NCBI RefSeq assembly: GCF_012396235.1
Contig: NZ_JAAXPA010000013.1
Location: forward strand, 1 to 64,000
Origin: Rhodococcus opacus
Lineage (GTDB): Bacteria; Actinomycetota; Actinomycetes; Mycobacteriales; Mycobacteriaceae
Reading direction: 5' to 3'
DNA: 64,000 nucleotides
Positions 7,471-45,190 of the stretch are shown here, piece after piece. Numbering within the stretch: the first letter of the stretch is position 1; each line of letters starts with the position of its first letter. The position numbers and the translations under genes were made by a program. Under the pieces are notes generated by a model. That model was not told the DNA's origin. It saw only the letters and a list, made by a program, of their open reading frames with translations, and made no database searches.

Positions 7471-8349
7471 ATGACCAAGTGGACAGCTTCGGACATCGTC
7501 GATCAGAGCGGCCGCACGTTCGTCGTCACGGGCGCCAACAGTGGTCTGGGGGAGGTGGCCGCGCGGGCCCTGGGCAAGGCGGGGGCGCACGTCGTGCTGG
7601 CCTGCCGCAACACCCACAAGGGGGAGGTCGTCGCACGGTCGATCGGTGACAACGCCGAGGTGCGCCGCCTCGATCTGTCCGACCTCGCCTCGGTGCGCGA
7701 GTTCGCCGCCGGCGTCGAGTCCGTCGACGTTCTCGTGAACAACGCGGGCGTGATGGCGGTTCCGCAGCGCAAGACCGCCGACGGATTCGAAATGCAGATC
7801 GGCACAAATCATCTCGGGCACTTCGCATTGACCGGCCTGCTGCTCGACAGGATCACCGATCGGGTCGCCACGATGTCGAGTGCGGCACATCAGGCGGGAA
7901 CGATTCACCTCGACGACCTCAACTGGGAGCGCCGCAAGTACAACCGCTGGAGCGCGTACGGGCAGTCGAAACTCGCGAATCTGCTGTTCACATACGAGTT
8001 GCAGCGCAGGCTGTCGGCGGCGGGGTCACCCGTGAAAGCGGTGGCCGCGCACCCCGGTTACGCGTCGACCAATCTGCAGGCCCACACCGAGTCGGTGCAG
8101 GACAAGCTGATGGCCGTCGGCAACCGGATCTTCGCGCAGTCGGCGGAGATGGGGGCGCTGCCGATGCTGTACGCGGCAACGGCACCCGATGTGATCGGTG
8201 GCAGCTACATCGGGCCGGACGGCCTGTTCGAGCAGCGTGGCCATCCGAAGGTGGTGGGCTCCAACAAGAAGTCGCGGGACGAGCACACCGCGCGGGCGCT
8301 GTGGGCGCTGTCGGAGGACCTGACGGGCGTCGAGTTCAAGTTCGGGTGA
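7471..8349 (+). CDS. SDR-family oxidoreductase, retinol dehydrogenase/WWOX-like
   Basis: A 292-residue SDR with intact active site: TGANSGLG cofactor motif, NNAGVM, Ser in MSSAAHQ, and YGQSK. The TGANSGLG and DLSDLASV pattern, with a long C-terminal segment after LFEQRGHPK, is typical of the retinol dehydrogenase/protochlorophyllide reductase-like branch common in mycobacteria and rhodococci. The substrate is unknown. The gene follows the CocE hydrolase by 40 bases on the same strand and may share its transcript. It converges with ohr. Confidence 0.9.
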   Translation: MTKWTASDIVDQSGRTFVVTGANSGLGEVAARALGKAGAHVVLACRNTHKGEVVARSIGDNAEVRRLDLSDLASVREFAAGVESVDVLVNNAGVMAVPQRKTADGFEMQIGTNHLGHFALTGLLLDRITDRVATMSSAAHQAGTIHLDDLNWERRKYNRWSAYGQSKLANLLFTYELQRRLSAAGSPVKAVAAHPGYASTNLQAHTESVQDKLMAVGNRIFAQSAEMGALPMLYAATAPDVIGGSYIGPDGLFEQRGHPKVVGSNKKSRDEHTARALWALSEDLTGVEFKFG

Positions 8350-8370
8350 CGCGACGCCCGTCAGGGTTGC

Positions 8371-8793
8371 TCAGTCTTCGGTGACCTCGAGGGTGACGTC
8401 GATGTTGCCGCGGGTGGCGTTGGAGTAGGGGCACACCTGGTGTGCCTTCTCGGTCAGCTCGAGCGCCTCGGCGCGCGGCAGGTGGGGCAGGGAAACCTCG
8501 AGGGTGACGGCGAGACCGAATCCGCCGCTGTCCGTCGGGCCGATGCCGACGCGGGCGCCGACGGCCGAGTCGGCGACGTTCGCCTTCGCCTGACGGCCGA
8601 CCAGCTGGAGCGCGGAGTGGAAGCATGCCGCGTATCCGGCGGCGAACAACTGCTCGGGGTTGGTGCCGTCGCCGGACCCGCCCATCTCGGTGGGGATCGC
8701 GAGGTTCAGGTCGAGCTTGCCGTCGGACGTGCGGGCGTGGCCGTTGCGGCCTTCTCCGGTCGCGAGGGCTTCGGCGGTGTAGACGATCTTCAT
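8371..8793 (-). CDS. ohr: Organic hydroperoxide resistance protein Ohr
   Basis: A 140-residue OsmC/Ohr-family peroxidase that reduces organic hydroperoxides. Both redox cysteines are present, one in AACFHSAL on the central helix and one in VCPYSNATRGN. Ohr-type start (KIVYTAEALATG) and length match the family. The ATG is preceded by AGGAGAG. It starts two bases after the ohrR stop on the same strand, so ohrR and ohr form one operon, and OhrR probably represses both until a peroxide oxidises its cysteine. Confidence 0.95.
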   Translation of the reverse strand: MKIVYTAEALATGEGRNGHARTSDGKLDLNLAIPTEMGGSGDGTNPEQLFAAGYAACFHSALQLVGRQAKANVADSAVGARVGIGPTDSGGFGLAVTLEVSLPHLPRAEALELTEKAHQVCPYSNATRGNIDVTLEVTED

Positions 8794-8795
8794 GG

Positions 8796-9248
8796 TTACT
8801 TCTCTCCTGTAGGGGTGGTGAAGCTGTGGAGTGATTCGGTGAGACGCGACAGTGTGTCCCGGAGGGCGACGAGTTCGTCGATCTCCATTCCCGTCGAGTC
8901 GGCGAGTTCGGCGGGGATGCCCTCCGCGGCGGCGCGGAGGGCCGCACCCTTCTCGGTGAGGTGGATCCCGACCCGGCGCTCGTCGGCCGAGGAGCGCCGG
9001 CGTTCGACCAGGCCCAGGGTTTCGAGCCGCTTGAGCAGTGGCGACAGCGTGCCGGTGTCGAGGTCGAGGGCGTCGCAGATCTCACGTACTCCGCGGCCGT
9101 CCCGTTCCCAGAGCACCAACAGCACGAGGTACTGCGGGTAGGTCACTCCCAACGAGTCGAGCATCGACCGGTATCTCGCCGTCATGGCCCGGGAAGCCGA
9201 GTACAGGGCGAAGCACACCTGGCGGTCGAGGGTGAGGTTGTCGGTCAC
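8796..9248 (-). CDS. ohrR: MarR-family peroxide sensor OhrR
   Basis: A 150-residue winged-helix MarR regulator. The N-terminal LDRQVCFALYSASRAM has the reactive Cys conserved in OhrR proteins, and YPQYLVLLVLWERDG leads into the HTH, matching OhrR. The frame stays open upstream, but the GTG at 9248 gives the family length and leaves the palindromic operator outside the gene. It is immediately upstream of ohr. Expected role: repressor released when the Cys reacts with organic hydroperoxide. Confidence 0.92.
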   Translation of the reverse strand: MTDNLTLDRQVCFALYSASRAMTARYRSMLDSLGVTYPQYLVLLVLWERDGRGVREICDALDLDTGTLSPLLKRLETLGLVERRRSSADERRVGIHLTEKGAALRAAAEGIPAELADSTGMEIDELVALRDTLSRLTESLHSFTTPTGEK

Positions 9249-9256
9249 CCCTGAAT

Positions 9257-9285
9257 AGTTGCACACAACTAGGTTGTGCACAACC
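9257..9285. promoter_or_regulatory. Probable OhrR operator, two inverted repeats
   Basis: Just upstream of ohrR lie an imperfect palindrome AGTTGCACACAACT (9257-9270) and a perfect 14-bp palindrome GGTTGTGCACAACC (9272-9285), one base apart and sharing TTG and CAA half sites. Position and symmetry fit an autoregulatory MarR/OhrR site. It also lies upstream of the divergent riboswitch transcript, so it could affect that promoter. Assignment to OhrR is inference. Confidence 0.65.
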
Positions 9286-9326
9286 AAGAACTGGAATCGG
9301 TGATTGCGCTTACACTGTTGGCCAGT

Positions 9327-9412
9327 GACACGGGGTGCTGCCCGGCGACGAGCCGGACGGCTGAGAACAGACCCGTCGAACCTGAACTGGGTAATGCCGG
9401 CGAAGGGATGTC
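9327..9412 (+). promoter_or_regulatory. Thiamine pyrophosphate (TPP) riboswitch, THI element
   Basis: Near-consensus THI-box: GGGGTGC near the 5' side, CTGAGA, ACCC, GAACCTGAACTGGGTAAT and GCCGGCGAAGGGA in the right order, closed by GACA/TGTC at the ends (9327-9330 with 9409-9412). A possible -10 hexamer TACACT lies at 9311-9316. The aptamer ends about 60 bases before the ATG of the SDR gene, a layout compatible with control of translation initiation. TPP binding is expected to repress the downstream genes. Confidence 0.93.
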
Positions 9413-9473
9413 GCGGAGACGGCCGTATGCGCTCATCCGATGTCTCGTCGCCGACCGAACGGAAGGTGACAGC

Positions 9474-10238
9474 ATGCAGCTCGACAAGCAGATCGTCCTG
9501 GTGACCGGCGGTGGGCGGGGCCTCGGCGCCGCCATCGTGCGGTCGTTCGCGGCGCAGAACGCGCGGGTGATCGTGAACTACCGGAACAGCCGGGAGGCGG
9601 CCGAAGAACTCGCGACCTCCCTGGGCGCGGACCGTGCGGTCGCGCTCCGGGCCGACGTCACGGACGCCGGACAGGTGGCGGCGCTGTTCTCCGCGGCGGA
9701 AGAACACTTCGGCTCACCGGTGACCACGGTGATCAACAACGCGCTCGCCGACTTCTCCTTCAACGGCGACGCACGCGACAAGGCGGACGTCATCACGTGG
9801 GATGCCTTCGACTCGCAGCTGCGTGGCAGCGTGAAGGCGACCCTGCACACGACGCAGGCCGCGCTGCCGGGCATGCGTTCGCTCGGGTTCGGCCGGATCG
9901 TGAACATCGGAACCAACCTGTTCCAGAACCCCGTCGTCCCGTACCACGACTACACGGCCGCCAAGGCCGCGGCGTTGTCGCTGACCCGCACGCTCGCGGC
10001 CGACCTCGGTCCCGACGGCATCACCGTCAACATGGTGTCGGGCGGGCTGCTCCGCACCACCGACGCGAGCGCCGCCACTCCCGACGAGGTGTTCGACCTC
10101 ATCGCGGCGAGCACCCCGCTGCAGCGGGTCACCACGCCGGACGAGTTCGCCGACGCGGTGCTGTTCTTCGCGTCCCCGTGGTCGCGTGCGGTGACCGGCC
10201 AGAACCTCGTCGTCGACGGCGGACTGGTCAAGGACTGA
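9474..10238 (+). CDS. SDR oxidoreductase under TPP-riboswitch control
   Basis: A 254-residue FabG-like SDR: TGGGRGLG cofactor motif, NNA segment, YTAAK catalytic pair and a VDGGLVKD C-terminus. The residue 13 before the Tyr is Thr (IGTN) instead of the usual Ser. The ATG was chosen for its GGAAGG site seven bases upstream and because it starts exactly at the Rossmann fold; upstream in-frame sequence is riboswitch. The next gene starts one base after its stop, so it forms an operon with the flavin monooxygenase. Riboswitch control suggests a role in making, salvaging or modifying thiamine or its precursors; the reaction is unknown. Confidence 0.88.
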   Translation: MQLDKQIVLVTGGGRGLGAAIVRSFAAQNARVIVNYRNSREAAEELATSLGADRAVALRADVTDAGQVAALFSAAEEHFGSPVTTVINNALADFSFNGDARDKADVITWDAFDSQLRGSVKATLHTTQAALPGMRSLGFGRIVNIGTNLFQNPVVPYHDYTAAKAAALSLTRTLAADLGPDGITVNMVSGGLLRTTDASAATPDEVFDLIAASTPLQRVTTPDEFADAVLFFASPWSRAVTGQNLVVDGGLVKD

Positions 10239-10239
10239 C

Positions 10240-11535
10240 ATGAGCGACGCCCGGCAACTGCACTTCAACGCGTTCCTCTACAGCTGCGGGCACCACGGCG
10301 CCGCGTGGCGGCACCCCTCGTCCCAGGTGGAGCGCCTCTGCGACATCGCCTACTACGAGGAGTTGGCGCAGACCGCGGAGCGCGGATGCCTCGACGCGGT
10401 GTTCTTCGCGGACGGGCATTCGGTGCGCGACCCCGCATCCGGAGGCATGTGGTTCCTCGAACCGCTCACCGCGCTGTCCGCGATGGCGCGGGCGACGGAG
10501 CGGGTCGGACTCGTGACGACGGTGTCCACCACGTTCTACACACCGTTCCACGCCGCCCGGATGCTGGCGTCGCTCGACCACATCAGCGGCGGCCGTGCCG
10601 GCTGGAACGTGGTGACGTCCATGTTCGACGCCGAAGCGCGCAACCACGGACTCGAGGCGATGCCGCCGCACGACGAACGCTATTCGCGCGCCGCGGAGTT
10701 CGTCGACGTGGCACTTGCTCTGTGGGATTCGTGGGAGCCCGACGCGCTCGTGCTCGACCGTGAGGGCATCTTCGCGGACCCGGCCAAGGTGAAGCCGGTC
10801 GAGCATCGGGGAAAGCATTTCCTCGTGGACGGTCCGCTGAACGTGCCGCATTCGCCGCAGGGTCGTCCCGTGCTGTTCCAGGCCGGCGCGTCCGATCAGG
10901 GCCGCGACCTGGCCGCCCGGTGCGCCGAGGGCATCTACGCCGTCGCCTACGACCTCACGGCCGCGCAGAGCTACTACGGCGACGTGAAGCGGCGCATCCG
11001 TGCGGCGGGCCGCGACGCCGACGCGGTGGTCGTGATGCCCGGTCTGGTGACCTATGTCGGCTCGACCGGTGCGGAGGCCCGGCGGAAGAAGGCGGAACTC
11101 GACGCGCTTCTGCCCGTCGAACAGTCGCTGGCGCAGTTGTCGATGTTCGTCCAGCAGGACTGCAGTGCCTGGGAATTGGACGCACCGGTTCCCGCGCTGC
11201 CGCCACTGTCGGAGTTCACCGGGCCGCAGGGCCGGTACGACACGATCCTGCGGATCATCGACAAGGACCGTCCCACCGTGCGGTCGCTGCTGGGCACGTT
11301 GGCGGCCGGTGGCGGCCACTGCACCATGATCGGAACCCCGGAATCGATCGCCGACGAGATCGAGGTGTGGTTCCGCCGCGGCGGGGCCGATGGCTTCAAC
11401 CTGATGCCGCCGCTCTACCCGAACGGCCTCGCCGACTTCGTCGACGAGGTGATCCCCGTCCTGCAGAAGCGTGGACTGTTCCGCGCGGAGTATGAGACAG
11501 ACACTCTGCGCGACCATCTCCGGGGGCGCCCGTAG
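10240..11535 (+). CDS. NtaA/SnaA/DszA-type flavin-dependent monooxygenase
   Basis: A 431-residue luciferase-like enzyme of the nitrilotriacetate/pristinamycin/dibenzothiophene monooxygenase group, which uses reduced FMN supplied by a separate reductase. Group marks include HFNAF near the N-terminus, WFLEPLTALSAMARATERVGL, HISGGRAGWNVVTS and GRPVLFQAGASDQGRDLAA. It is translationally close-coupled to the SDR and therefore downstream of the TPP riboswitch. Relatives attack C-N or C-S bonds, so oxidation of a thiazole or pyrimidine derivative is conceivable, but that is inference. No flavin reductase gene is adjacent. Confidence 0.9.
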   Translation: MSDARQLHFNAFLYSCGHHGAAWRHPSSQVERLCDIAYYEELAQTAERGCLDAVFFADGHSVRDPASGGMWFLEPLTALSAMARATERVGLVTTVSTTFYTPFHAARMLASLDHISGGRAGWNVVTSMFDAEARNHGLEAMPPHDERYSRAAEFVDVALALWDSWEPDALVLDREGIFADPAKVKPVEHRGKHFLVDGPLNVPHSPQGRPVLFQAGASDQGRDLAARCAEGIYAVAYDLTAAQSYYGDVKRRIRAAGRDADAVVVMPGLVTYVGSTGAEARRKKAELDALLPVEQSLAQLSMFVQQDCSAWELDAPVPALPPLSEFTGPQGRYDTILRIIDKDRPTVRSLLGTLAAGGGHCTMIGTPESIADEIEVWFRRGGADGFNLMPPLYPNGLADFVDEVIPVLQKRGLFRAEYETDTLRDHLRGRP

Positions 11536-34703: not shown

Positions 34704-35026
34704 GGTTACCTCCTTTCTCGAAGTCGTTGTAGGGCATCACAAATAGGGGACCACGAAGTGCCCGTCCGGGGGTGGAGGGGTCGCGGCACCGCCGGGATGC
34801 CGAGCGAGGCGCGTCGAACGCGCGGGTGAATTCCCCGAACCGTTGTGCCGGAGAGATGTCTCGGTGGGCGCTCATGCGCCTTTCGTCGAGTCGAATTCGA
34901 GCATCTTCAATAGGTACCACATCCCCGCCCGTGTGGCGACAGTCAATTCGCCCCAGGTGAGTGCCGAAGTGTGTTCCGCCGTTCGTTGGCACTCACGTGC
35001 TGGTGAGGGCGACTATCGTCGAGGGC
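34704..35026. other. Intergenic region between DIP1984 gene and iclR
   Basis: A 323-base divergent gap. It contains the DIP1984 ribosome site at its left end and an imperfect hairpin near its right end (34957-34996). Between about 34850 and 34945 the sequence is locally less GC-rich. I found no credible reading frame, riboswitch or RNA gene in it; promoters for both flanking genes must lie here. Confidence 0.5.
34957..34996. repeat. GTGAGTGCC hairpin, GTGAGTG family copy 2
   Basis: Nine-base arms GTGAGTGCC and GGCACTCAC with a 22-base loop, 30 bases before the iclR ATG. The arms resemble the outer arms of the hairpins at 33980 and 42529. At this position it would lie in the iclR leader or promoter, so it may be a decayed terminator or an operator. 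Confidence 0.5.
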
Positions 35027-35812
35027 ATGCGAGCGGAAGACGGCGAATTGACCTCCAAGCACCAACCGTTGCTGGTGCTGAGCAAGATCACGGAGATCCT
35101 CGATGCGTTCAGCCTGTCGCGGCCGTCGATGACGCTGGGCGAGATCCATCAGGCGACGGGTCTGCCGACGTCGACGGTCCAACGGCTGGTCAGCAACCTG
35201 GTGGCGCAGGAATTCCTCGACCGGACCGGCGACCAGATCCGGATCGGCGTGAAGATGGCGTTCTGGGCCGCGACGGCCACCAAGGGACTCGACGTGCTGA
35301 CTGTCGTGACGCCGGTGCTGAAGGAGATCCGCGACGCCACCGGCGAGACCGCCAGCTTCTTCCGGGTCGAGCAGGGCTACCGCGTGTGTGTGGCCATCGC
35401 GGAGACCGAGCACGCGCTGCGCCGGAACATGTACGTCGGGAAGATCGTCCCCCTGCCCGCGGGTTCGGCGGGCCGGGTGTTGCTCGCCTGGAACCCGGAC
35501 CTCACCGAACAGGTCCTCGCCGGCCCGATCGAGCCGATGACCGAGGGCACCGTCACCGACACCGCGGTGCTGCGCGAACTGATCCACCAGGCCAAGGCCG
35601 ACGGGTACGCCATCACCGCGGGGGAGCGGGAGGACAGCGCCTCGGGATTGGCTGCGCCCGTGTTCGATTCGTCCGCCGACGTGATCGGTGCCTTGGCGAT
35701 CAGCGGGCCGACACTGCGCATGCCACGCGAGCAGTGCGAGAAATGGGTGGATCTGCTCGTCGGCAGCGCCGAGCAGGTCACCCGGACGCTGGGTGGCCGC
35801 TACCCGTCATGA
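35027..35812 (+). CDS. IclR-family transcriptional regulator
   Basis: A 261-residue IclR protein: N-terminal winged HTH (about residues 15-75, MTLGEIHQATGLPTSTVQRL) and a C-terminal GAF-like effector domain (ETASFFRVEQGYRVCVAIAETE, PLPAGSAGRVLLAW, SGLAAPVFDSSADVIGAL). IclR regulators usually sense small organic acids. It faces the catabolic run 41412-35778 tail to tail, and its last 35 bases overlap the glycerate kinase 3' end. It is the likely local regulator of that cluster. Confidence 0.92.
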   Translation: MRAEDGELTSKHQPLLVLSKITEILDAFSLSRPSMTLGEIHQATGLPTSTVQRLVSNLVAQEFLDRTGDQIRIGVKMAFWAATATKGLDVLTVVTPVLKEIRDATGETASFFRVEQGYRVCVAIAETEHALRRNMYVGKIVPLPAGSAGRVLLAWNPDLTEQVLAGPIEPMTEGTVTDTAVLRELIHQAKADGYAITAGEREDSASGLAAPVFDSSADVIGALAISGPTLRMPREQCEKWVDLLVGSAEQVTRTLGGRYPS

Positions 35813-36770
35813 GCTGCGCCGCGATCGCGCGGCCGGCTTCGTGCATGGCCACGGCGTCCGTGGCGACGAGGACGCCGGCGAACCGGGACCGGTAGTCGCC
35901 GAGATCGTCGCCGACGGAGCCGACGACGGCGTACACCGGGGTGGTGCCCGCGCGGGCGAGGATCACGGAGATGATCTTGCCCGCCTTCGTCTGCCCGTCG
36001 AGCCTGCCCTCGCCGACGACGATCGCCGACGCGTCCGCGGCCAGGGTGTCGAAGCCGGTCACGTCGAGGATGTACTCGGCGCCCGAGCGTAGTTCGGCGC
36101 CGTACCGCGCCCACATCCCGCCGGAGAACCCGCCTGCCGCACCGGTCCCGTCGACACTCGACGGGTCGCGGGGCAGAGCCCGCGCCTTCGCCTCGAGTTG
36201 CCGCGTGAGGACCTGCACGGCGCCCGCGTCGGCGCCCTTCTGCGGTCCGAACACTCGGGCGGCGTCGACGTACCGGGTGGTGACGTCGGTCAGCACGGTG
36301 ACGGCGGCGCCCCGGAGTCCGCCGCCCGCCTCGATGGCGGCGATGGCCCCGGTGCCGCCGTCCGTGGTGGCGGACCCGCCGGCCGCGACGACGATGTGCC
36401 GGGCACCGCGCCGGGCGGCATCGGCGACGAGCATCCCGGTGCCGTAGGTGGTGGCGGTGATCGGGTCGCGGGGGCCGTCGTGTGGCGTGGTGATCCCGGA
36501 GGCTGCGGCGATCTCGATGACCGCGGTCCCGTCGTCGGACAGTCCGTACGTCGGCCGGCACGGGCTGCCCCAGGGGTTGCGGGCGCAGGTGGTGACCGGA
36601 CGCAGTCCGAGGGGGACGGTGAGAACGTCGAGGGTGCCCTCGCCGCCGTCGGCGACCGGCAGCCTGATCGGGGCACCGCCGGACGACTCGACCCCGCCGG
36701 CGACGGCGTCGGCGACCTCGCCTGCGGTGTAGGTGCCCTTGAAACTGTCGGGGGCGATCAGAACCGTCAT
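35778..36770 (-). CDS. Glycerate kinase, GarK/GlxK type
   Basis: A 330-residue class I glycerate kinase with the family opening VLIAPDSFKGT, ADGGEGTLDVL, and GGSATTDGGTGAIAAI. Members phosphorylate D-glycerate with ATP, typically at O2, to give 2-phosphoglycerate for lower glycolysis. It is the last gene of a run of five joined by 4-base overlaps or short gaps. Its start overlaps the stop of the hydroxyacid dehydrogenase by four bases, so the pair probably converts hydroxypyruvate to phosphoglycerate. Confidence 0.93.
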   Translation of the reverse strand: MTVLIAPDSFKGTYTAGEVADAVAGGVESSGGAPIRLPVADGGEGTLDVLTVPLGLRPVTTCARNPWGSPCRPTYGLSDDGTAVIEIAAASGITTPHDGPRDPITATTYGTGMLVADAARRGARHIVVAAGGSATTDGGTGAIAAIEAGGGLRGAAVTVLTDVTTRYVDAARVFGPQKGADAGAVQVLTRQLEAKARALPRDPSSVDGTGAAGGFSGGMWARYGAELRSGAEYILDVTGFDTLAADASAIVVGEGRLDGQTKAGKIISVILARAGTTPVYAVVGSVGDDLGDYRSRFAGVLVATDAVAMHEAGRAIAAQLMTGSGHPASG

Positions 36771-37762
36771 GAGTTCCACGCTTCCGGGTTGACCGGATGC
36801 GGGGGAATCCGGTTCTGCGCCATGGCCACAGCGTTCTCGGCGCACAGCCTCGCCATCTCGGCGCGCACCGACACCGTGGCACTGCCGAGGTGGGGGAGCA
36901 GCACCGTGTTCGACTGTTCCGCGAGTCCCGGGGCGAGCGCGGGTTCGTCCTCGTAGACGTCCAGCCCGGCCCCGGCGATCTCCCCGGACTTCAGGGCGGC
37001 GACGAGGGCGGTTTCGTCGACGACGGGACCGCGGGCCGTGTTGATCAGGATCGCGGAGGGTTTCATCGCCGTCAGCACGCCCGCATCGACCAGGTGGCGG
37101 GTCTGCGCGTTGAGGGGGACGTGCAGCGACAGGTAGTCGCTGGTGGCGACGAGGGAGTTCCAGTCGGTGTGGGTGACGAGTCCGGCGAACTCCCCGAGCT
37201 CCTCGTCCGTCACCGGCCGGTCGCCGGGAGGCCGGGGGCAGAACTGCACCTGCATGCCGAAGGCCAGTGCCCGTTTCGCGGTCGCCCGCGCGATCCGCCC
37301 GAACCCGGCGAGACCGAGCGTGCGTCCCGAAACATCCTGGCCGAGGAGCAGGTTCGGTTCCCATCCGGTGAACCGCCCGGCGCGAACGAACGTGTCGGCC
37401 TCCACGGCGCGGCGGGCAGTGGCCATGATCAGCAGCATCGCGACGTCGGCGGTGGCGTCGGTGAGCACACCGGGTGTGTTGCCGACGAGTATCGAGTTCG
37501 CGGTGGCCGCACCGATGTCGACGTTGTTGAACCCGACCGCGTAGTTGGAGATCCCGCGGATCTTCGCGACGGCCAGGAGGTCGGCGTCGAACGTGTCGCG
37601 AAGCTGGGACACCACCACGTCGTAGTCGCCGGACACGCAGACCTCCCGCAGCCGGGCAGCGTCCGGAAGCTCGTCGGGGACATCGACGCTGCCCGCAGCG
37701 CGCAGCAGCGTGAGAGCGGGTTCGGGGATCGGAGTGGTGACGTAGAACCGGGCGCCGCTCAT
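36767..37762 (-). CDS. D-2-hydroxyacid dehydrogenase, probable hydroxypyruvate/glyoxylate reductase
   Basis: A 331-residue D-isomer-specific 2-hydroxyacid dehydrogenase. Catalytic Arg in INTARGPVVDE, Glu in DVYEDEP and His in LLPHLGSAT are present. The cofactor motif reads GLAGFGRIA, with Ala at the last Gly position. It resembles GyaR-type glyoxylate/hydroxypyruvate reductases. It overlaps the kinase gene and the lyase gene by four bases each, so translation is coupled. Reduction of hydroxypyruvate to D-glycerate is the most economical role next to a glycerate kinase. Confidence 0.92.
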   Translation of the reverse strand: MSGARFYVTTPIPEPALTLLRAAGSVDVPDELPDAARLREVCVSGDYDVVVSQLRDTFDADLLAVAKIRGISNYAVGFNNVDIGAATANSILVGNTPGVLTDATADVAMLLIMATARRAVEADTFVRAGRFTGWEPNLLLGQDVSGRTLGLAGFGRIARATAKRALAFGMQVQFCPRPPGDRPVTDEELGEFAGLVTHTDWNSLVATSDYLSLHVPLNAQTRHLVDAGVLTAMKPSAILINTARGPVVDETALVAALKSGEIAGAGLDVYEDEPALAPGLAEQSNTVLLPHLGSATVSVRAEMARLCAENAVAMAQNRIPPHPVNPEAWNS

Positions 37763-38697
37763 CGGCCGCCGCCGATGACCCACTCGAACGCGGTGGCATT
37801 GGAGCGTGCGCCCTGCGCGGCCTTGGACCGGTTGGCTTCGCCGAGTTCGGCGAGCGTCTTCTCGGACAGTTCCACGAGCGATCCGAATGTGGTGGGGTTC
37901 AGCCAGTCCGGGCGGGTGGCGAACAGCAGATCCTCGCTGGCGGTGTTGCCGCTGGCGCCGGGTGCGAACGGGCAGCCGCCGAGTCCGCCGAGGGCGCCGT
38001 CGACGGTCATGGCGCCGGCCGCGACCGCGGCGAGACTGTTCGCGACCCCCAGCCCCCAGGTGTCGTGGCCGTGGAAGACGATGCCCCGCTGCGGGGTTTC
38101 GAGCCGTACCCGGGAGACGAGCGAGTACACCTCGGCGGGAACGGCCTGGCCGAGGGTGTCGCAGACGACGACGTCGACGGCGCCGTGGGCGCGCGGATCG
38201 TTGGCGATGTCGATCACCCGCTGCTCCGGCACCCGGCCCTCGAACGGGCAGGTGAACGACGTCGCGATGCACAGTTGGATGCTGCCGCCGACCTCCTGCG
38301 CGAGTTCGATCGCGGCGGGCATCGCGGCGAGGCTGTCCTCGGTGGAACGTCCGATGTTCGCCTGGTTGTGGGAATCGGAGGCGGAGAAGCAGTACTGGAA
38401 ATGGCGTGCGCCTGCGGCGGCGGCCTTCTCCACGTGCCGGGGCGTCGCCACCCACACCCAGCAGTGGTCCAGTTCCTCCGCGGTCAGCTCCGAGATCACC
38501 TCGACGGTGTTCGCCATCGGCGGGACGAGGTCGGGACGGGCCATCGACCCGATCTCGAGCGCGGGCACGCCGAGTTCGAGGAGCCGCCGGGCGATCTCGA
38601 GCTTCCGGGCGGTGGACAGCATCTTGCCCGTCAACTGCAATCCGTCGCGCAGGGTGACGTCGCGGAGCAGGGCGCGTGATTCGAAGGACTGCGTCAT
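37759..38697 (-). CDS. HMG-CoA lyase-type enzyme
   Basis: A 312-residue DRE-TIM metallolyase of the HMG-CoA lyase branch: RDVTLRDGLQ near the N-terminus, metal-binding HGHDTWGL, and the catalytic-Cys loop GGLGGCPFAPGASGN. HMG-CoA lyase cleaves a 3-hydroxy-3-substituted acyl-CoA to acetyl-CoA and a keto product. No other leucine-degradation gene lies nearby; the gene is coupled by 4-base overlaps to a CoA transferase and to a hydroxyacid reductase, which suggests cleavage of another 3-hydroxyacyl-CoA whose keto product is a 2-oxoacid. Confidence 0.92.
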   Translation of the reverse strand: MTQSFESRALLRDVTLRDGLQLTGKMLSTARKLEIARRLLELGVPALEIGSMARPDLVPPMANTVEVISELTAEELDHCWVWVATPRHVEKAAAAGARHFQYCFSASDSHNQANIGRSTEDSLAAMPAAIELAQEVGGSIQLCIATSFTCPFEGRVPEQRVIDIANDPRAHGAVDVVVCDTLGQAVPAEVYSLVSRVRLETPQRGIVFHGHDTWGLGVANSLAAVAAGAMTVDGALGGLGGCPFAPGASGNTASEDLLFATRPDWLNPTTFGSLVELSEKTLAELGEANRSKAAQGARSNATAFEWVIGGGR

Positions 38698-39947
38698 GAG
38701 AGGCCACCTACTGTGTCGTTGACGATGGAGTCGATCTGTTCCGGGGTCTTGCCGAGCACTGTTTCGAGGACCTCGCGGGTGTGCTCGCCGAGGTCCGGTC
38801 CGACACTGCGGATGGGCAGTGACTTGCCGCCGATCACCGGGACGATGCCGGGGAATCCGACCTGCTTCGGCTCGGCCTCACCGGTGTCGACGGTGAACTG
38901 CTGAATCATGTTGCGGGCCGCGTACTGCTCGTCGCTGCAGATGTCGGCGGCGGTGTTGATCGGACCCGACGGCACCCCCGCCGCATCGAGGACCTTCAGC
39001 GCCTCCTCGCGCGAGTGCTGGATCGTCCACTCACCGATCGCCGCGTCCAGTTCGTCGCGGCGCGCCCACCGTCCGGCGTTGGTGGACAGATCCGGGTCGG
39101 CGCCGAGGTCGGGGCGGCCGATGGTGTCCATGTAGCGCTGGAAGATGGCGTCACTGTTGCCGGCGATGATGATGCTGTCGCCGTCGCTGCAGATGTACGC
39201 GTTCGACGGGGCTATACCCTCCATCCGGCCGCCGACGCGTTCGCGTTTGATGCCGTACGCGAGGTAGTCGGGAATCAGCGATTCCATCATCGACAGGATC
39301 GATTCGTTGAGTGCGACGTCGATGATCCGATGCGGCAGGGACGGACCCTGGGTTCCGGCGACCTTCGCGGCCTCACGCTGGAACAGGGCCATCACCGCCC
39401 CGAACGCCGCGTAGAGGCCGGCGATCGAGTCACCGATCGACACCCCCACCCGCACCGGTGGCCGGTCCGGGTCGCCGACGAGTTCACGGAATCCGCCCGC
39501 GGCCTCCGCGACCGCGGCGAACCCCGGGCGCTGCGACATCGGCCCGGTCTGCCCGAACGCCGAGATGCGGGTGATCACCAGGTCCGGATTGGCCGCGTTC
39601 AACGCGTCCGGTCCGATGCCCCACTTCTCCAGGGTGCCGGGCCGGAAGTTCTCCAGCAGGATGTCGCACTTGGCGGCGAGGTCCAGGACGAGCTGCCTGC
39701 CTTCCTCGGTGCGCAGGTCCAGCACGATCGACTTCTTGTTGCGGTTGATCGTGCGGTACAGCATCGAGGTGTCGCCGGAGTAGAGCCGCCAGTTGCGCAG
39801 TTCGTCGCCGGTCTTCGGGCGCTCCACCTTGATGACCTCGGCCCCGAAGTCGGCAAGCATCCGGCCCGCGGTCGGGGCGGCGATGTAGTTGCCCAGCTCG
39901 AGTACCCGAACCCCGTCGAGGGGCCGAATGGTGTTGTCGGAGAACAT
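38694..39947 (-). CDS. Class III (CaiB/BaiF) CoA transferase
   Basis: A 417-residue family III CoA transferase: LDGVRVLELGNYIAAPTAGR opening, ADFGAEVIKVERP, NRNKKSIVLDLRTEEGR, and the GDSIAGLYAAFGAV region (the Asp corresponds to the family nucleophile). Such enzymes move CoA from a donor such as succinyl-CoA to a carboxylic acid. It is coupled by a 4-base overlap to the lyase gene, so it probably activates the acid the lyase cleaves. The ATG is preceded by AAGGA. Confidence 0.93.
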   Translation of the reverse strand: MFSDNTIRPLDGVRVLELGNYIAAPTAGRMLADFGAEVIKVERPKTGDELRNWRLYSGDTSMLYRTINRNKKSIVLDLRTEEGRQLVLDLAAKCDILLENFRPGTLEKWGIGPDALNAANPDLVITRISAFGQTGPMSQRPGFAAVAEAAGGFRELVGDPDRPPVRVGVSIGDSIAGLYAAFGAVMALFQREAAKVAGTQGPSLPHRIIDVALNESILSMMESLIPDYLAYGIKRERVGGRMEGIAPSNAYICSDGDSIIIAGNSDAIFQRYMDTIGRPDLGADPDLSTNAGRWARRDELDAAIGEWTIQHSREEALKVLDAAGVPSGPINTAADICSDEQYAARNMIQQFTVDTGEAEPKQVGFPGIVPVIGGKSLPIRSVGPDLGEHTREVLETVLGKTPEQIDSIVNDTVGGLS

Positions 39948-39972
39948 GGTGATCCTTAACTGATAGTGACGC

Positions 39973-41412
39973 TCAGAGAACGAGGCTCATGGGCAGGACG
40001 AGCAGTATTGCGACGACCGATGCCACCGATACTCCCACCGAACACGTCTTCAGCGTGCCTCGTGTGGTCTGACCCATCAAGGACTGCAGCAGCCAGAACG
40101 TGTTGCTGGTGACATGCACCGCGAACAGGGAGCCGGCGCCGGCGGCGAGGGCGATGAGGACGGGGTCGAGGCCGAGGGTCGGTGCGATGGGGGCGAGGAC
40201 GCCCGCGGCGGTGATCGCGGAGATGGTCACCGAGCCGACGGCGACGTGCAGGACGGCGGCGATCACCCACACCATCAGCAGCGGAGCGGCGTGATTGGCG
40301 GTGAAGTACTTGCCGAGGATGTCGCCGAGACCGGCCGCGGCGATGGTCGCGGCGAGGGACCCGCCGACGCCGGTGAGGATGAGGATCTGGCCGCTCTCGC
40401 TGAAACCGCTGGCGATCGCCTTCTGGACGCGGTGCTGGCCGATGCTGAGCCGTCCGACGAAGCTGGTGCCGATCAGTCCGATCAGCAGCGCGATGAGCGG
40501 CTCGGACACGAACGACACGACCGGATTGCTGATCTCGGCGATGTCCAGGATCGCGCCGGTCGCGATGAGCAGGAGGGAGACGAGCAGCGGAGCGAGGAGC
40601 AGGATCAGGGGGCGGTCGTGCGCCGCGCGCTCGGCCGTGACCTCGGTGACGGTCGCGGTGCGTTGCGCCTGGGCGACGCGTCCGCCGGCATCGGGCCGAG
40701 GGGTGGTCCCGCCGCTGCCGCCGTCGGTCCACTGGTCCTCTTCGTCGTCGACGACCGTCTGATGGAAGTGCTCCTCGTCCTTCTCCGGGTTCCACCAACC
40801 GCGGGTGAACAGGAACGACATGATCGCGACGGAGATCGCCACGGTCGGGATCACCAGGATCAAGCCGAAGATCAGCATCTTGCCGAGCGGCACACCGAGA
40901 AGTCCGGCGAGGGCGAGGGCGCCGACACCGGGAACCATCAGCACGATGCCGCACTCCAGGCCGATGGCGAGGGCGGTGGCCATGCGTGCGGTCCCGACCC
41001 GGCCGACCTTCGGTGCGAGGTTGCGGGCGAGCGGGGCGGAGATGACGAGCAGGACGTCGAGGAAGATGGACTGCAGCAACGTCGCGATCGTCAGCGACAT
41101 CGCATAGGGCATTCGTTTCGGCCCGAACACCCGCAGAAGTGTTCCGACCAGGCGCTGGATCGCGCCCATTTCTTTCAACATGGCGCCCACCAGGACGCCG
41201 AAGGCGATCAGAAGTCCCACTTCGGCCATGATGTCGCCGAAACCGGTGCTGATGACTTCCACCGTTTCGGCCGTGCCGAGTCCCGTCGTGAGTCCGAGGT
41301 AGGCGGATCCGACGACCAGTGACACCACTGGGTTGAACTTGAAACGCACGATCATCAGAACGACCGCCGCGACGGCGACCGTGGTGTTGATCAGGATTGC
41401 TACGTCTGACAT
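39973..41412 (-). CDS. GntP-family organic acid permease
   Basis: A 479-residue polytopic protein of the GntP family (gluconate and related hydroxyacid:H+ symporters), with about 12 hydrophobic segments, a polar loop near residues 215-245, and family regions such as MLKEMGAIQRLVG, VGSVTISAITAAGVLAP and VHVTSNTFWLLQSLMGQTT. It is the first gene of the catabolic run, so uptake of a polyhydroxylated or branched acid is likely. The next gene begins 25 bases after its stop. Confidence 0.9.
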   Translation of the reverse strand: MSDVAILINTTVAVAAVVLMIVRFKFNPVVSLVVGSAYLGLTTGLGTAETVEVISTGFGDIMAEVGLLIAFGVLVGAMLKEMGAIQRLVGTLLRVFGPKRMPYAMSLTIATLLQSIFLDVLLVISAPLARNLAPKVGRVGTARMATALAIGLECGIVLMVPGVGALALAGLLGVPLGKMLIFGLILVIPTVAISVAIMSFLFTRGWWNPEKDEEHFHQTVVDDEEDQWTDGGSGGTTPRPDAGGRVAQAQRTATVTEVTAERAAHDRPLILLLAPLLVSLLLIATGAILDIAEISNPVVSFVSEPLIALLIGLIGTSFVGRLSIGQHRVQKAIASGFSESGQILILTGVGGSLAATIAAAGLGDILGKYFTANHAAPLLMVWVIAAVLHVAVGSVTISAITAAGVLAPIAPTLGLDPVLIALAAGAGSLFAVHVTSNTFWLLQSLMGQTTRGTLKTCSVGVSVASVVAILLVLPMSLVL

Positions 41413-41534
41413 GTGCGCGTCCTTATCGAGGAGGCGGGGTAGTGACTGGCGTCACAGGTACACCCATATTATGAGCACACACTCACGATATAAGCAATGG
41501 GCCTTCGGCCTCGTGCGGGTGGAATACTCGACGC

Positions 41535-42542
41535 ATGGTCGTGCTGGATCCGTTTGCGGTGGGACGGCCGACGGCCGCCGAGCGCAGAGCGTCGGAGGAC
41601 TGGAGCGAGATCCAACTCTGGTCCGACCGCGTGTACATGCCCTACGTCGTGCGTCCGCTCGGTGTCGGGCTGTCACCCCGGTCGAGCATGTACTCCACGA
41701 AGATCGGCGACATCACCGTCACCCGGTTCTCCTACGGAATCCCCGTCTCGGTCGGCGACTTCTCGTCCGACGCAGGAAACGCGCTCGTTCTCACGACCAT
41801 CCGGGGCAACGCCCGGCACCACCTCGACCACGACGCCACCGCGGACACACCGGCAGGTGACACGTTCGTCGCCGACTGCAGTCGCGTCGACTACCTCGTC
41901 GAGTTCTCGCCCGACCACGTCCAGCTCAATCTCACCGTTCCCCATGCGTTGCTCACGGACACGGCTGTGCGCTGGTGGGGATTCGACCCCGGAGATCTTC
42001 TATGGCAACGCAAATGCGCCATCGGCGGCGGCGGATCCGGCTGGCAGGCGCTGCTCGCTTACGCGATGCGGACGACGGGAGAGCTACCGGGGCACGCCAC
42101 CGAGGGGCGCATCGGACTCAACCTGCAGGAGTTGCTGGTCGGGCACCTGCTCACCGAATGGGCGGCTCGCGCCGGAGTGGACCCGGACAGGTCCACCGGC
42201 CCGGCGGCGCCCGGCTATGTGCGGCACGCCGTCCAATACATCCGGGAGTACGCCCGCGAACTGCCGACCGCTTCCGACATCGCCGACGCGGTGGGTGTCA
42301 GCGTCCGCACCCTGTCCGGGTCGTTCCGGAAATACCTGAACACCACCCCGGCCGAGTACGTGCGTGAGCAGCGCCTCCAGGGCATCCGGGAGGAACTGCT
42401 CACCGCATCGCCGGGCGAGACCGTCGCCTCGATCGCCGGCGCGTGGGGATACGTCAACCTCGGCCTCTTCGCGGCCGCCTACCGTCGCCGGTTCGGTGAG
42501 AATCCGTCGCAGAGCAGGGCCTTCGGCCCCGTGAGTGGTTGA
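41535..42542 (+). CDS. AraC-family transcriptional regulator
   Basis: A 335-residue regulator with a C-terminal double HTH (about residues 230-330: TASDIADAVGVSVRTLSGSFRKY, YVREQRLQGIREEL, VASIAGAWGYVNLGLFAAAYRRRFGENPS). The N-terminal half resembles the AraC-binding-like cupin domain of AlkS/XylS-type regulators of aromatic catabolism. It is divergent from the GntP gene and might control that cluster along with IclR, or a remote target. It ends in a shared hairpin with metE. Confidence 0.9.
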   Translation: MVVLDPFAVGRPTAAERRASEDWSEIQLWSDRVYMPYVVRPLGVGLSPRSSMYSTKIGDITVTRFSYGIPVSVGDFSSDAGNALVLTTIRGNARHHLDHDATADTPAGDTFVADCSRVDYLVEFSPDHVQLNLTVPHALLTDTAVRWWGFDPGDLLWQRKCAIGGGGSGWQALLAYAMRTTGELPGHATEGRIGLNLQELLVGHLLTEWAARAGVDPDRSTGPAAPGYVRHAVQYIREYARELPTASDIADAVGVSVRTLSGSFRKYLNTTPAEYVREQRLQGIREELLTASPGETVASIAGAWGYVNLGLFAAAYRRRFGENPSQSRAFGPVSG

Positions 42543-44964: not shown

Positions 44965-44985
44965 GTCGGGCACGGCGTGCCCGAC
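44965..44985 (-). terminator. Hairpin in the metE leader, expression platform candidate
   Basis: Nine-base arms GTCGGGCAC and GTGCCCGAC with a 3-base loop, directly 3' of the riboswitch aptamer on the metE strand. It could stop transcription or compete with aptamer helices. No U-tract follows, so mechanism is open. Confidence 0.5.
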
Positions 44986-45190
44986 ACAGTCGGCAGGTCT
45001 TCGGACTTGCAGGCAGCCGGTGTGACATCACACCGGACCTAGTGGCCGTCGCTTCCCAGGCGGTTGCCCAGTGCATGGTGACGGCGGTCGTTCCTGCTCA
45101 CCGCTGCGGGACAGTCCCGGATTATCACCGGGTTCCCTCTCACACGCGGACTCCGGGGAGGCCGACGTGCTTCGACGCCAGGTGCGGTCT
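44986..45190 (-). promoter_or_regulatory. Cobalamin (B12) riboswitch controlling metE
   Basis: Read on the minus strand the region contains, in order, GGGAACCCGGTG, AATCCGGGACTGTCCCGC, AGCGGTGA, CTGGGAAGC, GGCCACT and the B12 box GTCCGAAGACCTGCC, the standard cobalamin riboswitch set. The 5' boundary is approximate. It lies about 140 bases before the metE start. Confidence 0.95.

What the first reader, a model, noticed from the sequence alone, without database searches (positions are those of the whole stretch)
35027..41412. Candidate pathway for a branched hydroxy-diacid such as itatartarate, ending in acetyl-CoA and phosphoglycerate
Seen: GntP permease, class III CoA transferase, HMG-CoA-lyase-type enzyme, D-2-hydroxyacid dehydrogenase and glycerate kinase on one strand, the last four joined by 4-base overlaps, with an IclR regulator facing them. 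Known: HMG-CoA lyases split 3-hydroxy-3-substituted acyl-CoAs to acetyl-CoA plus a keto product; glycerate kinase needs D-glycerate, made from hydroxypyruvate by such dehydrogenases. Inference: the lyase product is hydroxypyruvate, which requires an acid of the form 2-hydroxy-2-(hydroxymethyl)succinate (itatartarate) or its lactone 2-hydroxyparaconate, activated by the CoA transferase. An ordinary HMG-CoA or citramalyl-CoA role would leave the reductase and kinase unexplained.
Basis: partly seen in the sequence, partly recalled or inferred. Interest (0 to 1): 0.8.

Follow-up and report, generated by a model that had tools for sequence, protein, structure and literature searches.

The report
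Actinobacterial operon splitting a branched hydroxy-diacid
An actinobacterium carries a compact five-gene operon that most likely imports a branched hydroxy-acid, cuts it into acetyl-CoA and hydroxypyruvate and feeds the latter into central metabolism; itatartarate, a fungal acid for which I found no described breakdown route, fits best but is untested.

Summary
In detail: GntP permease, class III CoA-transferase, HMGL-type lyase, D-2-hydroxyacid dehydrogenase (DH) and class I glycerate kinase (GK) on one strand, the last four joined by 4-base overlaps, with a convergent IclR gene. It is more than a chance row. Of 58 distinct loci of this lyase subfamily, a transferase (whole or fragment) lies within 6 kb in 48, DH is directly adjacent in 15 and GK is within 6 kb in 7; the full set occurs in the window and three Arthrobacter loci. 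Of 46 loci of other HMGL-type lyases none has an adjacent DH or a nearby GK. An operator-like element shared by gntP upstream regions has one close match in the window's genome. The simplest chemistry is acyl-CoA to acetyl-CoA plus hydroxypyruvate, then D-glycerate, then phosphoglycerate, which points to itatartarate. Against it: 43 of 58 loci lack an adjacent DH, 51 a nearby GK, 10 the transferase, and nothing tested here separates itatartarate from citramalate, hydroxycitrate or malate. In the papers I read passages of, itatartarate is a dead end in Pseudomonas. Interpretation partly supported, substrate unproven.

The parts
35027..35812 (+). IclR-family regulator, convergent with the operon; proposed local regulator (start uncertain, 34961-35027)
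   Evidence: Pfam IclR_C and HTH_IclR; an IclR match within 6 kb of the lyase in 27 of 58 family loci, against 3 of 46 outgroup loci
35778..36770 (-). class I glycerate kinase (GK)
   Evidence: Pfam Gly_kinase; TIGR00045 214.1 bits, cut-off 168.45; within 6 kb of the lyase in 7 of 58 family loci
36767..37762 (-). D-2-hydroxyacid dehydrogenase (DH), proposed hydroxypyruvate reductase
   Evidence: Pfam 2-Hacid_dh and 2-Hacid_dh_C; best NCBIfam and PDB matches are glyoxylate reductases; directly adjacent to the lyase in 15 of 58 family loci
37759..38697 (-). HMGL-type acyl-CoA lyase of a distinct subfamily
   Evidence: Pfam HMGL-like; HMG-CoA-lyase catalytic residues kept, many subfamily-specific residues
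38694..39947 (-). class III CoA-transferase, proposed to activate the acid
   Evidence: Pfam CoA_transf_3; best NCBIfam match succinate-glutarate CoA-transferase, below cut-off; within 6 kb of the lyase in 48 of 58 family loci, fragments included
39973..41412 (-). GntP-family permease, proposed uptake of the acid
   Evidence: Pfam GntP_permease; within 6 kb of the lyase in 21 of 58 family loci
41457..41492 (-). operator/promoter-like element upstream of gntP
   Evidence: common element of 20 gntP upstream regions, 17 used for the profile; single match with up to 3 mismatches in the own genome

Best explanation
The operon is a compact catabolic pathway. GntP imports a branched hydroxy-dicarboxylic acid; the class III CoA-transferase puts CoA on its CH2-COOH end (donor probably succinyl-CoA); the HMGL-type lyase splits the 3-hydroxy-3-substituted acyl-CoA into acetyl-CoA and a 2-oxo acid; DH reduces that acid, hydroxypyruvate, to D-glycerate; GK phosphorylates it to 2- or 3-phosphoglycerate. 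The simplest acid that gives acetyl-CoA plus hydroxypyruvate in this scheme is itatartarate (2-hydroxy-2-(hydroxymethyl)succinate). IclR is proposed to act on the element upstream of gntP. Shown: the genes, their families, their conserved association and the shared element. Inferred: every reaction, the direction of DH, the regulator's binding and, above all, the substrate. I give about 0.6 to hydroxypyruvate as the lyase product and 0.45 to itatartarate as the substrate.
For: Five genes in the same order in Arthrobacter loci L028, L051 and L061. DH adjacent in 15/58 family and 0/46 outgroup loci; GK within 6 kb in 7/58 and 0/46 (Fisher p 6e-5 and 0.014, relatedness ignored). GK stands by the lyase in two separate supported parts of the lyase tree and in two arrangements, lyase-DH-GK and lyase-GK. 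In G289 the only class I GK found is the gene directly after the lyase. DH homologs of 46 and 48% lie directly upstream of a GK, away from the lyase, in G222 and G255. A class I GK is present in 24 of 24 genomes searched (23 with the lyase, plus G067; no lyase-free actinobacterial control). One close operator-like match in the genome. The lyase keeps the catalytic residues of HMG-CoA lyase but has subfamily-specific residues near them and scores 189 against the 246 cut-off of the HMG-CoA-lyase model, which the genome's C55 lyase passes at 328.
Against: 43 of 58 family loci have no adjacent DH and 51 no nearby GK; 10 have GntP, transferase, lyase and IclR without either, which would do for citramalate. 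10 of 58 have no transferase within 6 kb, among them all three lyase-GK loci. G067 has transferase plus DH but no lyase at E 1e-60; G148 has DH alone. In four genomes of one genus the GK ortholog lies 8-12 kb from the lyase, in line with a succinate-semialdehyde-dehydrogenase-like gene and a gene over the tartrate-dehydrogenase cut-off, and without the element, so GK there may serve tartrate. The nearest named transferases also include formyl-CoA/oxalate enzymes. No lactonase was identified; small glyoxalase-fold genes near L051, L037 and L140 could not be assigned. I did not search how common itatartarate is in soil.
Confidence: 0.45

Rival explanations
1. Citramalate pathway: transferase and lyase convert citramalate to acetyl-CoA and pyruvate; DH and GK are passengers or serve another substrate.
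For: [quoted passage not shown] 10 of 58 family loci have GntP, transferase, lyase and IclR without DH and GK.
Against: Leaves DH and GK unexplained although they go with this lyase subfamily and not with 46 other HMGL-type loci. The genome has two other transferase/lyase sets, one at least with a dicarboxylate carrier (MatC/CitMHS, C17), that could serve citramalate.
Confidence: 0.22
2. Hydroxycitrate pathway: the lyase gives acetyl-CoA and oxaloglycolate, which loses CO2 to hydroxypyruvate, or is reduced to a tartrate that a tartrate dehydrogenase turns into glycerate.
For: Gives the same use for DH and GK; in one genus a tartrate dehydrogenase gene and GK lie about 5-12 kb from the lyase-DH pair.
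Against: No such dehydrogenase was seen beside the window operon (by eye); those genes lack the element; GntP carriers are not known for tricarboxylates (recalled).
Confidence: 0.1
3. Malate/glyoxylate route: the lyase splits malyl-CoA to acetyl-CoA and glyoxylate; DH and GK act as in the serine cycle after transamination.
For: DH is most like glyoxylate reductases; malyl-CoA lyase, hydroxypyruvate reductase and GK are serine-cycle partners (recalled).
Against: No serine-glyoxylate aminotransferase, glyoxylate carboligase or tartronate-semialdehyde reductase was recognised by eye in the neighbours printed (one look-alike in L031 is reductive-aminase-like); known malyl-CoA lyases are of another family (recalled).
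Confidence: 0.08
4. Ordinary HMG-CoA lyase for leucine or 3-hydroxy-3-methylglutarate use.
For: Family resemblance (best PDB match is an HMG-CoA lyase, E 4.1e-45); second-best PDB match of the transferase is a succinate-hydroxymethylglutarate CoA-transferase.
Against: Below the HMG-CoA-lyase cut-off (189 against 246 bits) while the genome's C55 lyase passes it (328 bits); DH and GK unexplained.
Confidence: 0.04

Closest known systems
Succinyl-CoA:(R)-citramalate CoA-transferase (EC 2.8.3.20) with (R)-citramalyl-CoA lyase (EC 4.1.3.46)
   Same: Transferase and lyase split a 2-hydroxy-2-substituted succinate to acetyl-CoA and a 2-oxo acid (PMC8307300, passages)
   Different: Here a reductase and a glycerate kinase follow in the operon, with GntP and IclR; proposed substrate has CH2OH in place of CH3. 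No reference sequence of that pair was compared
Pseudomonas itaconate cluster (PA0878-0886)
   Same: CoA activation and lyase cleavage of a branched C5 diacid; its PA0880 turns 2-hydroxyparaconate into itatartarate (PMC9875883, section 2.3 and passages)
   Different: Itatartarate is not used for growth there and is drawn as a dead end; no reductase or glycerate kinase step in the parts I read
HMG-CoA lyase
   Same: Sequence family and catalytic residues
   Different: Below the model's cut-off, subfamily-specific residues, different partner genes
Hydroxypyruvate reductase plus class I glycerate kinase
   Same: Last two proposed steps; class I kinases serve sugar-acid and glyoxylate routes in E. 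coli (PMC2063504, passages)
   Different: Here proposed to be fed by an acyl-CoA lyase

Membership tests
HMGL-like superfamily (PF00682) | Pfam gathering score | tested here: met
   144.2 bits, cut-off 29
HMG-CoA lyase (NF004283) | curated NCBIfam cut-off | tested here: not met
   189.4 bits, cut-off 246; the genome's C55 lyase scores 327.9
HMG-CoA lyase | residues equivalent to human R41, D42, E72, H233, H235, C266, N275 (list recalled) | tested here: met
   present in every one of the 56 or 57 family rows with a letter there
(R)-citramalyl-CoA lyase (EC 4.1.3.46) | similarity to the characterised enzyme; activity on citramalyl-CoA | not tested
   no reference sequence obtained; activity cannot be tested here
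Class III CoA-transferase (PF02515) | Pfam score and conserved catalytic Asp (role recalled) | tested here: met
   374.1 bits, cut-off 23.3; Asp of GVSIGDS in 46 of 46 aligned rows
Succinate-glutarate CoA-transferase (NF052585) | curated cut-off | tested here: not met
   251.9 bits, cut-off 750
D-2-hydroxyacid dehydrogenase | Pfam scores and catalytic Arg, Glu, His (roles recalled) | tested here: met
   all three in 16 of 16 aligned rows (one a duplicate)
Glyoxylate reductase (NF009714) | curated cut-off | tested here: not met
   293.8 bits, cut-off 455
Glycerate kinase class I (TIGR00045) | curated cut-off | tested here: met
   214.1 bits, cut-off 168.45
Gluconate:H+ symporter (TIGR00791) | curated cut-off | tested here: not met
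   204.3 bits, cut-off 292.75; Pfam GntP_permease is met
Itatartarate catabolic pathway | itatartarate to acetyl-CoA and hydroxypyruvate | not testable with these tools
   needs enzyme assays

The most novel reading that the evidence does not exclude
A dedicated bacterial pathway for the fungal itaconate derivative itatartarate (and, after lactone opening, 2-hydroxyparaconate), whose lyase family spreads over several actinobacterial orders and whose full set is also carried on an Arthrobacter megaplasmid, turning a described metabolic dead end into acetyl-CoA and phosphoglycerate.
Probability: 0.42. Interest if true: 0.75.

Novelty: new variant of a known kind. Interest (0 to 1): 0.6.

Why it matters
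If true it would be the first breakdown route for itatartarate in the open-access library I searched (subscription papers are not held). Smut fungi make it from the antimicrobial itaconate (PMC9875883), and in Pseudomonas it is a dead end. It would give HMGL-type lyases and class III CoA-transferases a new substrate class, correct automatic names for a family found in many soil-type actinobacteria, and supply enzymes for using itaconate derivatives.

Tried and rejected
A 2-hydroxyparaconate lactonase link could not be made: the own genome has 51 matches to PF00903 and no PA0880 sequence was on hand. Small glyoxalase-fold genes stand near L051 (14360-14731, 123 aa), L037 (8021-8818) and L140 (12393-13349); the family scans do not assign them. 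The aldehyde dehydrogenase / tartrate dehydrogenase / GK genes of one genus do not carry the element (no hit over 11 bits in L032, L033, L037, L142-L144). Further element sites in the own genome: none with up to 3 mismatches, but the pattern was drawn close to the window's own site and weaker sites would be missed. Class II (MOFRL) glycerate kinase as substitute: 0 of 24 genomes; class I in 24 of 24, weak evidence without a lyase-free actinobacterial control (5 of 14 named controls have it). A 3-hydroxyisobutyrate-dehydrogenase-like gene near L031 proved reductive-aminase-like. Isosaccharinate breakdown as a source of itatartarate: considered only; the listing held two isosaccharinate papers, none read. 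2-Deoxy-aldonate substrates rejected because the product would be an aldehyde. Searches of papers on the gene combination found none on it (0 papers; 8 listed, one read in passages for kinase classes); (lyase pocket, hydroxycitrate) listed nothing of use among the rows shown.

No structure prediction was run. Neighbour genes were mostly named by eye from sequence starts; ten were then scanned against NCBIfam and Pfam. The gene caller in my scripts is a simple codon model and missed genes (gntP of L057, lyases of low-GC loci); one search uses six-frame profile searches instead, with profiles built from the family's own members, so weak homologs in the outgroup may be missed.
Full report
On the minus strand run GntP permease (39973-41412), class III CoA-transferase (38694-39947), HMGL-type lyase (37759-38697), D-2-hydroxyacid dehydrogenase DH (36767-37762) and glycerate kinase GK (35778-36770); the last four are joined by three 4-base overlaps, and an IclR gene ending at 35812 converges on GK. 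The window lies in a genome of 8.1 Mb. In NCBIfam GK passes a cut-off (TIGR00045); the lyase, transferase, DH and GntP pass none of the models listed for them.

The lyase is a separate subfamily. Orthologs at 65-77% identity occur in 19 of 298 genomes drawn from the order, counting the window's own (E 1e-60), and in 13 of 394 drawn from the class, 9 of these already in the first sample (E 1e-75). The own genome's longer paralog matches are 31-36% identical (short stretches of about 70 residues reach 42%). Against human HMG-CoA lyase the residues R41, D42, Q45, E72, D204, H233, H235, C266 and N275 are kept in every family row with a letter there (57 rows; roles recalled). Other positions are specific to the subfamily: human S78, L106, N109, G173 and Y238 read R, W, T, T and W in 55 or more rows. 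Whether these line the substrate pocket was not tested. The genome's C55 lyase passes the HMG-CoA-lyase cut-off, and C1 and C17 carry two further transferase/lyase/transporter sets, with no DH or GK in the stretches held; the C17 transporter is a MatC/CitMHS type.

Gene association was counted by six-frame profile searches. Family loci: 18, 3 plasmid loci, 33, 4 and the window, 59 in all, less one duplicate (L149 of L052) = 58. Outgroup: 47 less one near-duplicate = 46. Within 6 kb of the lyase, family: transferase 48 (fragments in L027, L037 and L075 included), DH 15 (all directly adjacent), GK 7, GntP 21, IclR 27. Outgroup: transferase 39, DH 2 (weak, 3-5 kb off, none adjacent), GK 0, IclR 3. 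The window and Arthrobacter loci L028 (a 1.35 Mb plasmid), L051 and L061 have all five genes in the same order plus IclR. L035, L062 and L063 have lyase-GK with neither transferase nor DH within 6 kb. Ten loci have GntP, transferase, lyase and IclR without DH and GK, and ten have no transferase. On a tree of 57 family and 5 outgroup lyases GK appears in two separate supported groups; DH appears in Nocardiaceae, Mycobacteriaceae, Micrococcaceae and a further family of the order (G138, G255), with 8 changes on the tree, 4 of them forced by well-supported branches, against 13.6 for shuffled labels. Fisher tests (DH p 6e-5, GK p 0.014) ignore relatedness.

From the other genes' side: close DH orthologs (E 1e-100) occur in 10 of 298 order genomes; 8 are directly beside the lyase, G067 has one directly after the transferase with no lyase at E 1e-60, and G148 has one alone beside beta-ketoadipate-type genes named by eye. 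GK matches (E 1e-70) occur in 7 of 298; six are 70% or more identical, two of these (window, G289) in line with the lyase and four (G021, G234, G254, G293, one genus) 8-12 kb from it, with a succinate-semialdehyde-dehydrogenase-like gene and, in the one copy scanned (L033), a gene over the tartrate-dehydrogenase cut-off. In three of these four the transferase is fragmentary or missing and no gntP was found. Away from the lyase, DH homologs of 46 and 48% lie directly upstream of a GK in G222 and G255. A class I GK is present in 24 of 24 genomes searched, 23 with the lyase plus G067; class II in none. In G289 the only one is the gene after the lyase. No actinobacterial control without the lyase was run; 5 of 14 named controls have the family.

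Regulation: a palindrome-biased search of 20 gntP upstream regions (of 21 GntP loci; L057 was missed by the gene caller) gave one common element. For 17 of the 20 it scores 23.5-45.8 bits leave-one-out; L076-L078 carry diverged versions and were left out of the profile. One shuffle of each of 153 sequences gave at most 18.9 bits, but one unrelated, apparently AT-rich locus (L102) reaches 22.9, close to the weakest member. L057 (28.7) and L071 (28.9, before the transferase) also have it. In the window it is 41457-41492(-). The core pattern with up to 3 mismatches occurs once in the whole genome, its reversed control never; in the window 1 match against 0.01 expected for a shorter form. It is not seen near the aldehyde dehydrogenase / tartrate dehydrogenase / GK genes. 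L150 and L151 have an ABC importer, with an NMT1-type binding protein, in place of GntP. The unit thus looks like one import-and-use operon; that IclR binds the element is inferred.

Mechanism: HMGL-type lyases split R-C(OH)(X)-CH2-CO-SCoA into acetyl-CoA and R-CO-X (recalled). A 2-oxo-acid reductase and a glycerate kinase next to such a lyase are explained most simply if the product is hydroxypyruvate, so R is CH2OH and X is COOH: itatartarate. An Arg conserved in 16 of 16 DH rows in the cofactor region, with no Asp among the letters shown, suggests NADPH and hence the reducing direction (rule recalled). Class I glycerate kinases make 2- or 3-phosphoglycerate (PMC2063504, passages). Citramalate needs neither enzyme; hydroxycitrate and malate remain possible. 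Nearest named transferases are succinate-glutarate first, then formyl-CoA/oxalate and mesaconate types; the best PDB match is an unnamed CaiB/BaiF protein, the next a succinate-hydroxymethylglutarate transferase.

Literature: in the library eight papers hold 'itatartarate' and sixteen 'itatartaric acid' (listings). I read passages of PMC9875883, PMC11626831 and PMC12290011, and section 2.3 of PMC9875883 whole. There PA0880 opens 2-hydroxyparaconate to itatartarate, neither supports growth of the Pseudomonas strains tested, and itatartarate is drawn as a dead end. I found no catabolic pathway for it in what I read. The (R)-citramalate transferase and lyase are named in PMC8307300 (passages); that this lyase is of the HMGL type is recalled.

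Conclusion: observation confirmed; interpretation plausible and strengthened by comparison, substrate unproven. About 0.6 for hydroxypyruvate as product and 0.45 for itatartarate as substrate.

Noticed in passing
window 41535-42542 (+): AraC-family regulator diverging from gntP; not found at 40% identity or more in the 54 other loci searched, so probably unrelated.
   Followed up: partly
window 44975-45182 (-): Cobalamin riboswitch (RF00174) upstream of a metE-like gene named by eye.
   Followed up: no
window 9321-9425 (+): TPP riboswitch (RF00059) upstream of genes that look by eye like a short-chain dehydrogenase, a flavin monooxygenase and a transporter rather than thiamine synthesis.
   Followed up: no
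L032, L033, L037 (G254, G293, G234): The operon is decaying: transferase fragmentary or missing and gntP not found, while lyase and DH stay open.
   Followed up: partly
L140 (G067) 8249-10446: CoA-transferase directly followed by DH with a 4-base overlap and no lyase in the genome at E 1e-60.
   Followed up: partly
L150 and L151 (G601, G477): Transferase-lyase pair preceded by an ABC importer with an NMT1-type binding protein instead of GntP.
   Followed up: partly
L051 13842-14731 (+): A DUF3237 gene and a 123-residue glyoxalase-fold gene follow the full operon and its IclR; a possible accessory lactonase cannot be judged from the scans.
   Followed up: partly
own genome C1 near 474443-476414 and C17 near 111035-114440: Two further class III transferase / HMGL-type lyase / transporter sets without DH or GK in the stretches held; candidates for citramalate or similar acids.
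   Followed up: partly
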